Source of the DNA: Burkholderiaceae bacterium | Lineage (GTDB): Bacteria > Pseudomonadota > Gammaproteobacteria > Burkholderiales > Burkholderiaceae_C | Assembly (NCBI GenBank): GCA_026125795.1 | Contig: JAHCKM010000002.1 | Coordinates: forward strand, 62,001 to 126,000 | Length of the DNA: 64,000 nt | Direction: 5' to 3' | Shown here: positions 35,758 through 40,382 of the stretch, one piece after another | Position numbering within the stretch: position 1 is the first letter of the stretch | Layout: each line of letters begins with the position of its first letter | Translations under genes and position numbers: made by a program | Notes under the pieces: model-generated | Database searches by the model: none | Told to the model about the DNA's origin: nothing | Seen by the model: the letters and a program-made list of their open reading frames with translations, nothing else

Positions 35758-36292
35758 GCGCGGCGCGGCGGGCGGTACCCGGGGCGGGCTCCTGCTGGGT
35801 CGGTCGGCCCTGCGGGCCGACTGCGCTGCGGTGCTCGCATCACGAGGGCGGCTGCGATGCCGCTCGCAAGCGGCCCTGGACGGGCCGCTGCTTCATGGCT
35901 TCTCGCCGGTCCGGCGCTCAAAGCGCGCCGGACTTCCCCTCGCGCTGCTGCGCTCCTCGCCGCCCCACAAGTCGCCCACCCCGGGTACCGCCCACCGCGC
36001 AGCACCGCTCGTGGTGTTCCTCGAAGAATACCCCGGTGGTGCGGCAAAGCCGTGGTCGGGTGTGCGCCGGCAGCGACATCTGCGGCGCCGAGGACCGCAG
36101 AGCGCATGGCCGCGCGCGCGCAGCGCGCGCTTCAACATCTGACTCGCGTCGATTGTTCGAGCGCAACGAACGAAGTGAGTGAAGCGAGTTTCGACGCGGG
36201 CCATGCGATCGAGGACCGGAGGGGAGCCGGCCGCAGGCCGGCCGCCGCAGCCGAGCGCCGGCGCATACCCGGCCGCGGCTTTGCTCGCTCAA
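35758..36292 (+). repeat. 535-bp non-coding structured repeat, copy A
   Basis: This copy aligns end to end with 39848-40382, with about 85-90% identity by eye and only compensating 1-bp indels. Stable hairpins: 35803-35821 (8-bp stem, TGC loop), 35869-35889 (8 bp), 35909-35933 (9 bp) and 36226-36242 (7 bp, GCA loop), plus an alternating GC hairpin around 36112-36130. Three hairpins differ from copy B by paired, compensatory changes. It fills the gap between the permease and formamidase genes. Short open frames here are not coding. Confidence 0.85.
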
Positions 36293-36317
36293 CCCTCAGC
36301 ACGAAGGAGCAAAGCAC

Positions 36318-37337
36318 ATGAGCGGACTCGGTGGCCTCAACAAGTCAGCGAACGGCGTCGTCGTCGGACTCGTTCAGCTTCAACTGCCCGTCGTTGAAAC
36401 ACCCGCTCAGCTCCAAGCACAAACCAAACGCATATGCGACCTCGTCGGCAAGGCCAGGCGCAATCTGAACACGATGGATCTCGTCGTGTTCCCCGAGTAC
36501 GCGCTGCACGGCCTGTCGATGAGCACGGCGCCGGAGCTGATGGTGTCGCTCGACGGCCCCGAGGTCGCGGCGTTCAAGGCGGCCTGCGTCGAGCACGGGA
36601 TCTGGGGTTGCTTCTCGATCATGGAGAAGAACCCGTCGGGCAATCCGTACAACAGCGGGCTGATCATCGACCACCGCGGGCAGATCCAGCTGTACTACCG
36701 CAAGCTGCATCCATGGGTGCCGGTGGAGCCGTGGGAGCCGGGCAACCTCGGCATACCGGTGTGCGACGGCCCCAAGGGCGTGAAGCTCGGGCTGATCATC
36801 TGCCACGACGGCATGTTTCCCGAGGTGGCGCGCGAGGCTGCGTACAAGGGCGCCGAGCTGATCGTGCGCACCGCTGGCTACACCGCGCCGATCCGCCACG
36901 CGTGGCAGATCACCAACCAGTCCAACGCGTTCCAGAACCTGGCCTACACCGCCAGCGTGTGCCTGTGCGGATCGGACGGCACGTTCGACTCGATGGGCGA
37001 GGGCATGGTGTGCTCGTTCGACGGCACCGTGATGGTCGCGGGTGGCGGGCGTCCCGACGAGATCATCACGGCCGAGATCCGCCCCGATCTCGTGCGCGAG
37101 GCGCGCGCCGGCTGGGGGGTGGAAAACAACATCTACCAGCTCTACCACCGCGGCTATGTGGCGGTGAAGGGCGGCGCGATGGACTGCCCCTACACGTTCA
37201 TGCACGACATGGTCAACGGGCGCTACCGGCTGCCGTGGGAGGCGAGCGTGCAGGTGACCGATGGCACGTCGTGCGGCTTCACGGCACCGACGCGGCCGTA
37301 TGCGGGGCCCGAACAACCGATCAAGAAGGTGGCTTGA
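36318..37337 (+). CDS. amiF: Formamidase (AmiF-type, nitrilase superfamily)
   Basis: A 339-residue carbon-nitrogen hydrolase. The catalytic triad is placed at E60 (VFPEYALHG), K129 (YYRKLHPW) and C162 (ICHDGMFPE). The N-terminus MSGLGGLNKS and the stretch VPVEPWEPGNLGIPVCDGP match the AmiE/AmiF branch; my memory of formamidase AmiF (same 33-residue K-to-C spacing) makes formamidase the better choice over aliphatic amidase AmiE. It releases ammonia and formate from formamide. AAGGAG lies 11-16 bases upstream of the start, and the gene abuts the next one with no gap. It lies between the two copies of the 535-bp repeat. Confidence 0.85.
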   Translation: MSGLGGLNKSANGVVVGLVQLQLPVVETPAQLQAQTKRICDLVGKARRNLNTMDLVVFPEYALHGLSMSTAPELMVSLDGPEVAAFKAACVEHGIWGCFSIMEKNPSGNPYNSGLIIDHRGQIQLYYRKLHPWVPVEPWEPGNLGIPVCDGPKGVKLGLIICHDGMFPEVAREAAYKGAELIVRTAGYTAPIRHAWQITNQSNAFQNLAYTASVCLCGSDGTFDSMGEGMVCSFDGTVMVAGGGRPDEIITAEIRPDLVREARAGWGVENNIYQLYHRGYVAVKGGAMDCPYTFMHDMVNGRYRLPWEASVQVTDGTSCGFTAPTRPYAGPEQPIKKVA

Positions 37338-38045
37338 ATGGCGACCATTGCTTCCACGCCTTATGCATGGCCGTACGACGGCGACTTCACGCCGAAGAAC
37401 AGCGCGCTCGTCATCATTGACATGCAGACCGACTTCTGCGGCGTCGGCGGCTACGTCGACAAGATGGGCTACGACCTGTCGATGACGCGTGCGCCGATCG
37501 AGCCGATCAAGGCCTTGCTCGCTGAAGCGCGGCGCGTCGGCATGCACGTGATCCACACGCGCGAGGGGCATCGGCCCGATCTGTCGGACCTGCCGGCCAA
37601 CAAGCGCTGGCGCTCGCGGCAGATCGGCGCCGGCATCGGCGACCCCGGGCCGTGCGGCCGCATCCTGGTGCGCGGCGAGCCCGGGTGGGACATCATCCCC
37701 GATCTGTATCCGGTCGCCGGCGAGCCGATCATCGACAAGCCCGGCAAGGGCTCGTTCTGTGCCACCGATCTGGAGCTGATCCTGCACACGCGCGGGATCC
37801 GCAACCTGATCCTCACCGGCATCACCACCGACGTGTGCGTGCACACCACGATGCGCGAGGCCAACGACCGCGGCTTCGAATGCGTGATGCTGACCGACTG
37901 CACCGGCGCCACCGATGCCGGCAACCACGCGGCGGCGTTCAAGATGATCCAGATGCAGGGCGGCGTGTTCGGTGCCGTCTCCGAGTCCAAGCAAGTGATC
38001 GAGGCCTTGAAGGCCTTCGCAACCGCAGGAGGGGCGGCAGCATGA
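37338..38045 (+). CDS. biuH: Isochorismatase-fold amidohydrolase, probable biuret amidohydrolase
   Basis: A 235-residue cysteine hydrolase. Catalytic residues: D28 (IIDMQTDF), K134 ([10 protein letters not shown]) and C167 (TTDVCVHT). Stretches such as [26 protein letters not shown] [20 protein letters not shown] and [18 protein letters not shown] are what I recall of rhizobial BiuH, which converts biuret to allophanate and ammonia. An allophanate hydrolase downstream (43561) would finish the pathway. It follows the formamidase directly and overlaps the binding-protein gene by four bases. A related ureide substrate remains possible. Confidence 0.8.
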
Positions 38046-39049: not shown

Positions 39050-39053
39050 CGCC

Positions 39054-39830
39054 ATGCAGGCCGCGATGAGCCAGGTGTGGAATCGGCGTTGGCTGCCGCT
39101 GATCGGGCCGCTGCTGCTGTTTGCGCTGTGGCAGCTGCTGATCAGTGCCCAGTTCGTCAAGCCGGTGCTGCTGCCGCCGCCGAGCGACACGCTGGCGCAC
39201 ATGGCCGGCGTGTTCGCCAGCGGGCACATCTTTCCCGACCTGTGGGCCACGATCTTCCGCACGCTGTGCTCGTTCGGCATCGCGGTGGTGATCGGCGTGC
39301 CGCTGGGCGTGATGCTGGGCAGCTCGGAGGCGGCCTACCGCAGCGTGGAGTTCCTGATCGACTTCTTCCGCTCCACGCCGAGCTCTGCGCTGATCCCGCT
39401 GTTCCTGCTGATCTTCGGCATCACCGACATCAACAAGATCGCGATTGCCAGCTTCGGCGCGATGCTGATCGTGCTGTTCAACAGTGCCTACGGCGTGATG
39501 CACGCCAAGAAGACGCGCGTGATGGCGGCCCAGATCATGGGCGTGTCCAAGTGGCACGTGTTCAAGGACGTGATGCTGATGGAGAGCCTGGCACAGACCT
39601 TTGTCGGCCTGCGCAGCGCGGTGTCGATGGCACTGGTGATCGTGATCGTGGCCGAGATGTTCATCGGCTCCGAGAGCGGCCTGGGCCACCGCATCATCGA
39701 CGCGCAGCAGGTGTTCAACGTGAAGGAGATGTACTGCTCGATCCTGGTGACCGGGGCGTTGGGTTATCTGTTGAACCTGCTGTTCCTGCTCGGCGAGAAG
39801 AAGCTGATTCATTGGAGTGGGAAGGCATGA
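39054..39830 (+). CDS. ABC transporter permease (SsuC/TauC-like)
   Basis: A 258-residue BPD_transp_1 permease with about six hydrophobic segments and the coupling loop AAQIMGVSKWHVFKDVMLME (about residues 160-179). It lies four bases after the binding-protein gene. Repeat copy B begins 17 bases after its stop and separates it from the ATPase gene. Confidence 0.92.
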   Translation: MQAAMSQVWNRRWLPLIGPLLLFALWQLLISAQFVKPVLLPPPSDTLAHMAGVFASGHIFPDLWATIFRTLCSFGIAVVIGVPLGVMLGSSEAAYRSVEFLIDFFRSTPSSALIPLFLLIFGITDINKIAIASFGAMLIVLFNSAYGVMHAKKTRVMAAQIMGVSKWHVFKDVMLMESLAQTFVGLRSAVSMALVIVIVAEMFIGSESGLGHRIIDAQQVFNVKEMYCSILVTGALGYLLNLLFLLGEKKLIHWSGKA

Positions 39831-39847
39831 ACGCTTGCGAGGGTGCA

Positions 39848-40382
39848 GCGCGGCGCGGCGGGCGGTACCCGGGGTGGGCTCCTACTGTCGCGGTCGGCGC
39901 TGCGCGCCGACTTCGCTGCGGTGCTCGCGGCACAAGGGCGGCTGCGATGCCGCTCGCAAGCGGCGCTGAACGCGCCGCTGCATCATGGCTTCTCGCCGGT
40001 CCGGCGCCTGGCGGCGCCGGACTTCCCCTTGCGCCGCTGCGCTCCTCGCCGCGCCACAAGTCGCCCACCCCGGATACCGCCCACCGCGCAGCACCGCTCG
40101 TGGTGTGCATCGTGGAATACCTCAGTGGTGCTGGCAAAGCCGGGGCCGGGTGTGCGTCGGCAGCGACATCTGCGGCGCCGAGGACCGCAGAGCGCATGGC
40201 CGCGCGCGCGCAGCGCGCGCTTCCACTTCTGACTCGCGTCGACTGTTTGACCGGAACGACCGAAGGGAGTGAAGGGAGTTTCGACGCGGGCCATGCGATC
40301 GAGGACCGCAGGGGAGTCGGCCGCAGGCCGACCGCTGCAGCCGAGCGCCGGCGCATACCCGACCGCGGCTTTGCTCGCTCAA
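39848..40382 (+). repeat. 535-bp non-coding structured repeat, copy B
   Basis: Direct repeat of 35758-36292 in the same orientation. Its hairpins lie at 39893-39911, 39959-39979, 39999-40022 and 40316-40332. Base pair 39899-39905 is G-C where copy A has C-G; 39965-39973 is G-C against C-G; 40317-40331 is T-A against C-G. It occupies the gap between a permease and its ATPase. No transposase, target-site duplication or terminal inverted repeat is visible. Confidence 0.85.

What the first reader, a model, noticed from the sequence alone, without database searches (positions are those of the whole stretch)
35758..40382. Pair of 535-bp non-coding direct repeats whose hairpins show compensatory base changes
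Copies A (35758-36292) and B (39848-40382) are the same length and align throughout. In three hairpins both members of a pair changed together: 35809-35815 C-G against 39899-39905 G-C, 35875-35883 C-G against 39965-39973 G-C, and 36227-36241 C-G against 40317-40331 T-A. A fourth hairpin (35909-35933 against 39999-40022) keeps a 9-10 bp stem although loop and register changed. Such covariation means the folded form, as RNA or as single-stranded DNA, has been under selection while the copies diverged. I know of no named element of this size and layout. It could be a structured regulatory RNA placed between co-transcribed genes, a non-autonomous mobile element, or a recombination substrate.
Basis: seen in the sequence. 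Interest (0 to 1): 0.88.

Follow-up and report, generated by a model that had tools for sequence, protein, structure and literature searches.

The report
Translated hairpin repeats bridging operon genes
Two long folded DNA repeats wedged between genes of one operon belong to a scattered family whose hairpins are kept by paired mutations, and most of the copies examined in this genome also stay readable by ribosomes from the stop codon of one gene to the start codon of the next, which suggests that these insertions persist because the cell can translate straight through them.

Summary
In detail: copies A and B align end to end and the named hairpins covary; across 33 full copies covariation exceeds all 500 shuffles. 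They are not a pair: this genome has at least 42 full or partial copies, and 6 of 6 genus genomes have matches. Of 40 copies read, 34 lie in sense between co-directional genes. At A and B a same-genus genome has bare ATGA stop/start overlaps. "Non-coding" is misleading: each window copy sits in a 195-codon open frame from the upstream gene's ATGA to the downstream gene's ATGA. Such bridge frames span 28 of 33 sense copies, against 4 expected for shuffled elements. Frameshifting indels compensate: 27 of 33 copies share one frame, permutation mean 13.9. The protein is not conserved. Other hairpin-rich inserts, without a match to this element, do likewise in Aquabacterium, Pseudorhodoferax and Variovorax. 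Best reading: a dispersed, formerly mobile hairpin element that persists at translational-coupling junctions because it is translated through. Translation is inferred; the mobilising enzyme is unknown.

The parts
35758..36292 (+). Repeat copy A (535 nt), between a BPD_transp_2 permease gene (34817-35737) and a CN_hydrolase gene (36318-37337)
39848..40382 (+). Repeat copy B (535 nt), between a BPD_transp_1 permease gene (39054-39830) and an ABC ATPase gene (40411-41250)
35763..36000 (+). Copy A module 1: 27-pair outer stem enclosing several hairpins; parts of it resemble module 2 inverted
   Evidence: coordinates converted from A1 columns 6-260
36044..36284 (+). Copy A module 2: 30-pair outer stem enclosing several hairpins
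   Evidence: A1 columns 306-572
39853..40089 (+). Copy B module 1
   Evidence: A1 columns 6-260
40134..40374 (+). Copy B module 2
   Evidence: A1 columns 306-572
35734..36321 (+). Bridge ORF A, 195 codons: ATG overlaps the permease stop (ATGA 35734-35737); TGA overlaps the nitrilase start (ATGA 36318-36321)
39827..40414 (+). Bridge ORF B, 195 codons: ATG overlaps the permease stop (ATGA 39827-39830); TGA overlaps the ATPase start (ATGA 40411-40414)

Best explanation
A and B are copies of a dispersed, non-autonomous, two-module hairpin element that sits at stop/start (ATGA-type) junctions inside operons. SHOWN by sequence: the family, the paired mutations, the empty junctions in relatives, and, in most copies of this genome, an open frame that starts in or just after the upstream stop codon and ends at or near the downstream start codon; that frame is kept by compensating indels without any sign that the encoded protein matters. 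INFERRED: ribosomes finishing the upstream gene re-initiate on the element frame, translate through it, and re-initiate on the downstream gene, so coupling is preserved and Rho-type polarity over an untranslated stretch is avoided; copies that lose this are removed by selection on the downstream gene. The hairpins are probably kept because the copying or gene-conversion process acts on the folded single strand of each module. That last step is the weakest; no enzyme was identified.
For: At least 42 full or partial copies. Of 40 read, 34 lie in sense between co-directional genes, 2 antisense, 2 between divergent and 2 between convergent genes. G300 has collinear sites A and B with bare ATGA overlaps and no element; the L063 junction is empty in G098 and G273 (in G300 by coordinates only) and the L014 junction in G098, G199, G299 and G300. 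Bridge frames: 28 of 33 own sense copies (22 ending within 4 nt of a downstream start, 6 within 20 nt) against 4.0 expected when the element body is shuffled. Frame 0 is open in 30 of 32 own non-antisense copies of 500 nt or more, each of the other five frames in 3 to 9. Net frame: 27 of 33 copies in one residue class mod 3 (permutation mean 13.9, 0 of 4000) and 18 of 24 distinct length patterns (mean 10.5, 0 of 4000); own sense copies 20 of 22 and 12 of 14 patterns. The ten own copies longer than 575 nt, which carry inserts of about 54 to 130 nt, are all open in frame 0. Of 921 differences from consensus in 22 own sense rows, 3 lie in frame-0 stop codons, 13.8 expected. Substitution rates by codon position 0.096/0.129/0.096 (21 rows). 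Codon-model scores of ORFs A and B are -110 and -77; two flanking genes score +89 and +116. Genus loci: 14 of 18 element gaps bridged. Hairpin-rich bridge frames without a match to this element in other genera.
Against: No expression or ribosome data. Five of 33 sense copies are not bridged (L021, L022, L061, L064, L066). In more distant genomes only 6 of 16 element gaps are bridged, and there 20 of 56 gaps without this element also test as bridged, 10 of those 20 folding no better than z -2.5, probably ordinary small genes that the own-genome model misses. For all copies, not deduplicated, moduli 4 and 5 also show some excess (p 0.006 and 0.001; on distinct patterns 0.09 and 0.058), the mark of relatedness. 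Antisense copies are weak support: 4 of 4 have an open antisense frame but so do 16 of 32 sense copies, and only 2 of the 4 are bridged. Some copies without a called gene pair are open too (L009, L018, L023). Module 1 wobble bias points to the minus strand. No Y1 transposase in 6 of 6 genus genomes and no RVT_1 in G000. Target-site duplication only weakly supported (permutation p 0.043).
Confidence: 0.7

Rival explanations
1. Structured intercistronic regulatory or stabilising RNA (BIME/REP-like): the folded mRNA segment sets relative expression, or is an RNase landing or protection site, and the open frame is incidental.
For: Strong covariation, sense placement between co-directional genes, long outer stems of 27 and 30 pairs.
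Against: Mod-3 compensation and stop avoidance and the bridge excess over shuffles are not explained; module 1 wobble bias is on the opposite strand.
Confidence: 0.2
2. A real family of about 195-residue proteins encoded between operon genes.
For: Conserved open frame with start and stop coupled to neighbours.
Against: Second codon position varies most; the frame is locally shifted in many copies so peptides differ; codon scores strongly negative; no Pfam match over its cut-off and no NCBIfam match over its cut-off for ORFs A and B.
Confidence: 0.04
3. The open frame is only inherited from one open master copy and copies are too young, or too often homogenised, to have decayed.
For: Copies are homologous, most full ones 81-95% identical to A; own copies are nearer on average to genome-mates than to the copy at the same junction in another species in 6 of 6 pairs; some copies outside a called gene pair are also open.
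Against: Many different compensated indel combinations; 4 own sites are shared with other species, 6 locus pairs with both flanks; inserts without a match to this element do the same.
Confidence: 0.06

Closest known systems
Rickettsia palindromic elements (RPE)
   Same: Dispersed palindromic repeats compatible with translation, many found in-frame (passages of PMC10969869 and PMC3733652)
   Different: According to those passages RPEs are about 150 bp, each encodes a conserved peptide, and nearly half lie inside genes as fusions; these are about 0.53 kb when full, form separate frames between genes, and the peptide is not conserved
REP / BIME and RAYT
   Same: Many hairpin-rich copies, inverted modules, in intergenic DNA likely to be transcribed
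   Different: Much larger units (REP 20-40 bp, abstract of PMC3733652); no Y1 transposase domain in 6 of 6 genus genomes; a kept reading frame is not mentioned in the passages I read
MITEs such as Chunjie of Geobacter
   Same: Non-autonomous dispersed element lying in an operon; the 2008 paper title, seen only in a reference list, says operon structure was not disturbed
   Different: Chunjie is 178-235 bp with terminal inverted and direct repeats (passage); the extreme ends here are not inverted copies of each other by reading, and duplications are unclear; whether Chunjie is translated could not be read (paper not held)
Translational coupling by termination-reinitiation at ATGA/TGATG
   Same: The junction type used here (abstracts of PMC6728339 and PMC10666635 in the listing)
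   Different: Those abstracts describe gene pairs, not inserted repeats

Membership tests
REP/BIME mobilised by RAYT | Y1 (HUH) REP-associated transposase in the genome | tested here: not met
   PF01797: 0 of 6 genus genomes including the window's own; 5 of 14 control genomes ring
REP/BIME mobilised by RAYT | Short 20-40 bp palindromic unit | tested here: not met
   Modules of about 240 nt in a 535-nt element; REP size from the abstract of PMC3733652
Group II intron / retroelement | Reverse transcriptase in the genome, or Rfam intron match | tested here: not met
   PF00078: no match in G000, present in 2 of 6 genus genomes; no Rfam match in the window at gathering nor for copy A at E<=1
MITE | Terminal inverted repeats at both extreme ends | tested here: not met
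   By reading the ends GCGCGGCGCGG and GGCTTTGC..CGCTC are not inverted copies; inverted repeats exist at module level (pair I3)
MITE | Target-site duplication | tested here: inconclusive
   ATGA on both sides at A and B against a single ATGA in G300; left/right flank similarity permutation p 0.043 over 40 loci
Rickettsia palindromic element (RPE) | Translatable in-frame palindromic repeat | tested here: met
   Open bridge frame in 28 of 33 own sense copies; actual translation not tested
Rickettsia palindromic element (RPE) | Conserved encoded peptide | tested here: not met
   Codon position rates 0.096/0.129/0.096
Structured RNA family | Significant covariation of a common fold | tested here: met
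   0 of 500 shuffles reach any of the five measures
Structured RNA family | Match to a described Rfam family | tested here: not met
   (one search covers copy A only)
Structured RNA family | Transcription and function as RNA | not testable with these tools
   no RNA-seq available
Protein-coding gene family | Purifying selection on amino acids | tested here: not met
   21 of 24 own rows

The most novel reading that the evidence does not exclude
Burkholderiales genomes carry several unrelated families of large hairpin elements that share one strategy: they occupy ATGA-type translational-coupling junctions and are maintained as protein-irrelevant open frames that ribosomes run through, so that selection reads the same bases three ways at once: as a folded strand, as a stop-free frame, and as a coupler between two genes.
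Probability: 0.5. Interest if true: 0.87.

Novelty: new variant of a known kind. Interest (0 to 1): 0.77.

Why it matters
If translated, these are coding sequences whose only duty is to be translatable. They would be a natural test of how much cost an untranslated gap imposes inside an operon (polarity, coupling) and of how mobile DNA adapts to gene-dense genomes. They could also account for some orphan 'hypothetical proteins' between operon genes, and they warn that open frame plus conservation does not mean a functional protein.

Tried and rejected
REP/RAYT and reverse-transcriptase mobilisation: no Y1 domain in 6 of 6 genus genomes, no RVT_1 in G000. Rfam: nothing. Plasmid and phage collections with copy A: no match. 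Target-site duplication: left against right flanks gave only p 0.043; single loci such as L013 and L064 look suggestive. A first codon-only gene caller missed real genes and was replaced by a 3-periodic Markov model. A first frame permutation counted the class of a per-segment majority length that was itself out of frame and so was uninformative; it was redone on the largest residue class. Wobble counts favoured G.U partly because the predictor allows it; the recount on Watson-Crick-majority pairs is. A second, partial copy of the Aquabacterium insert in its genome did not test as bridged, and a Variovorax paradoxus insert at site B (L098) gives a 105-nt frame that stops about 20 nt short of the next ATG.

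Rows dropped: one search used 21 of the 24 own rows of A1 (L020-L022 out, antisense L011 kept) and no genus rows; one search stop counts used 22 own sense rows; and leave out own copies without both flanking genes called (5 of 40) and the 2 antisense ones; one search skipped 6 overlapping loci, deduplicated junctions and kept gaps of 250-1000 nt; one search scored 40 of 304 first-look candidates; one search scored 2 candidates per genome; one search used 12 shuffles and at most about 450 nt per gap.

Ten paper searches were made. None of the titles and abstract openings that were listed describes this element or translated bridge frames in Burkholderiales; listings were capped in several (for example 15 of 29, 12 of 77), and only open-licence papers are held. 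Of papers I saw passages of PMC10969869, PMC3733652 and PMC5082802 and otherwise listings only.
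Full report
WHAT WAS CHECKED. With 24 full copies from the same genome and 9 from same-genus genomes, RNAalifold predicts 160 pairs, 52 with at least one sequence changed on both sides. Counting on that structure gives 97.8% of cells paired against 91.7 +/- 0.2 in shuffles and 293 double-change cells against 86.4 +/- 7.6; 0 of 500 shuffles reach any of the five measures. 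The structure was predicted from this same alignment and the copies are related, so the control is not a probability; the margin is nevertheless large. Stems are sometimes replaced as blocks: the hairpin near the 3' end exists in GTCGGCC/GGCCGAC and in CCCCTCGC/GCGAGGGG types.

WHAT IT IS. It is a dispersed repeat. Forty loci were read in the window's own genome (30 as search loci; 10 more by coordinates) and two further places appear; some are partial. All 6 genomes of the genus have matches; 147 of 299 genomes of the family have some match at E<=0.001, many of them short or weak. The element has two modules of about 240 nt, each closed by a long outer stem (27 and 30 pairs); stretches of module 1 match module 2 inverted. 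Ten own copies are longer than 575 nt and carry sub-elements of about 54-130 nt in all, some being two-hairpin units of about 75-80 nt at corresponding hairpin positions of either module. Own copies over 500 nt average 0.877 identity to each other and 0.802 to genus copies. Four own sites are shared with other species (6 locus pairs with both flanks, 25 genus loci compared). In 6 of 6 pairs the own copy is on average nearer to its genome-mates (0.873-0.888) than to the copy at the same junction (0.80-0.85), although in 3 of 6 that copy is still nearer than any other compared copy of that genome. So copies are partly homogenised within genomes, or sites are re-occupied.

WHERE IT SITS. With a 3-periodic Markov gene model trained on own loci, 34 of 40 copies lie in sense between two co-directional genes, 2 antisense between co-directional genes, 2 between divergent and 2 between convergent genes. 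The window operon runs permease, copy A, carbon-nitrogen hydrolase, isochorismatase-type hydrolase, NMT1-type binding protein, permease, copy B, ABC ATPase. The same operon in same-genus genome G300 is collinear and has neither element: both junctions are bare ATGA overlaps. Among 80 named loci from other Burkholderiales four have hits of this family, three of them elsewhere in or next to the same operon, none at junction A and none between homologues of the two genes that flank B. Of the 40 site-A junctions printed, 39 are under 60 nt; site B could be judged in 10 loci. Two further own sites are empty in relatives, at overlapping or near-overlapping stop and start codons by reading; at the L014 junction the relatives' downstream gene is read from a longer N terminus.

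THE OPEN FRAME. In A the ATG of the ATGA at 35734-35737 opens 195 codons that end at the TGA of the ATGA at 36318-36321; in B the same holds from 39827 to 40414. Of 33 own sense copies with both flanking genes called, 28 have a frame that starts within -4 to +12 nt of the upstream stop and ends within 20 nt of a downstream start, 22 of them within 4 nt. Shuffling the element body while keeping the flanks gives 4.0 expected, 3.0 tight. Frame 0 is open in 30 of 32 own non-antisense copies of 500 nt or more; the other frames in 3-9 each. Single-base indels are frequent, but their sums return to frame: 27 of 33 copies fall in one residue class modulo 3 (permutation mean 13.9, 0 of 4000) and 18 of 24 distinct length patterns do (mean 10.5, 0 of 4000). 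Other moduli on distinct patterns: p 0.40 (2), 0.09 (4), 0.058 (5); on all copies 0.16, 0.006, 0.001, an excess that relatedness gives. The ten longest copies, with inserts, are open in 10 of 10. Of 921 differences from consensus in 22 own sense rows, 3 lie in frame-0 stop codons against 13.8 expected, and 14 and 32 in frames 1 and 2.

NOT A PROTEIN. In 21 own rows, substitution rates by codon position in frame 0 are 0.096, 0.129 and 0.096. Between compensating indels whole segments are read in another frame. The Markov score of ORF A is -110 and of B -77, against +89 and +116 for two neighbouring genes. Pfam and NCBIfam give nothing over their cut-offs for the two ORFs. Antisense copies (L011, L020 here; L153, L167 in the genus) each have one open antisense frame, but 16 of 32 sense copies have one too, and 2 of the 4 test as bridged, so this is weak support. 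In more distant genomes L042, L051 and L052 have the matched part antisense to the genes and are bridged.

GENERALITY. In genus loci 14 of 18 element gaps are bridged; in more distant genomes 6 of 16. At site B, Aquabacterium soli (L138) and a Candidatus Aquabacterium (L121) carry an insert with no match to this element that folds into one long hairpin and forms a 411-nt frame from ATGA to ATGA. A third insert at site B, in Variovorax paradoxus (L098), gives only a 105-nt frame ending about 20 nt before the next ATG. Further bridged gaps without a match to this element and with strong folds (z -6.3 to -12.0, 12 shuffles each) occur in Pseudorhodoferax (L085, L086) and Variovorax (L091, L118, L146). 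Among 56 gaps without this element in other genomes 20 test as bridged; 10 of those 20 have z above -2.5 and may be ordinary genes.

MECHANISM. Shown: fold, frame, junction, insertion relative to relatives. Inferred: termination-reinitiation into the element frame and out of it, protecting the downstream gene from loss of coupling and from polarity. Published abstracts state that ATGA/TGATG pairs are translationally coupled and that coupling needs overlap or very short distance (PMC6728339, PMC10666635; seen in the listing). An untranslated 0.55-kb insert would be expected to break that, whereas a translated one need not. The reason for the kept fold is open. G.U against A.C counts on Watson-Crick-majority pairs are 93:7 in module 2 but 16:32 in module 1; since module 1 looks inverted, this fits selection on each module's own strand, as in a mobile or recombining single strand, better than selection on the operon mRNA alone, but strand-specific mutation could contribute.

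LIMITS. No expression data; gene calls are from a home-made model; copies are related; no mobilising enzyme was found; insertion ends and duplication are uncertain.

Noticed in passing
L026, L027, L028, L029, L060, L062, L063, L066 (own genome): Extra hairpin sub-elements, in the four read closely (L026-L029) two-hairpin units of about 75-80 nt, sit at hairpin positions of either module, in opposite orientation in module 1 (L029) and module 2 (L026, L028); stems differ between copies but linkers are alike.
   Followed up: partly
L002/L031/L163, L005/L158, L008/L150, L064/L164/L167: The same gene junctions are occupied in several genus members, yet own elements are on average nearer to genome-mates than to the copy at that junction; at the L064 junction G199 (L167) has the element in the opposite orientation.
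   Followed up: partly
L085, L086, L091, L118, L146, L121, L138: Hairpin-rich inserts with no match to this element that form open frames between two co-directional genes, in Pseudorhodoferax, Variovorax and Aquabacterium.
   Followed up: partly
window 35758-36292 and 39848-40382, A1 columns 450-464: A GCGAACGAAGTGAGC-type hairpin with two opposed GA steps (possible tandem G.A pairs) and a GAA loop; its outer pair covaries (G-C in 24, A-U in 8 of 33). The G.A reading is from memory of such motifs.
   Followed up: no
window 50383-51846 and 26191-27537: Two unrelated stretches of tandem repeats with spacings of about 240-250 nt and 285-320 nt that look like repeated protein domains.
   Followed up: no
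G098:C12 and C24 (L205, L207, L208): Three equally scoring reverse transcriptase matches in one genus member; none in the window's genome.
   Followed up: no
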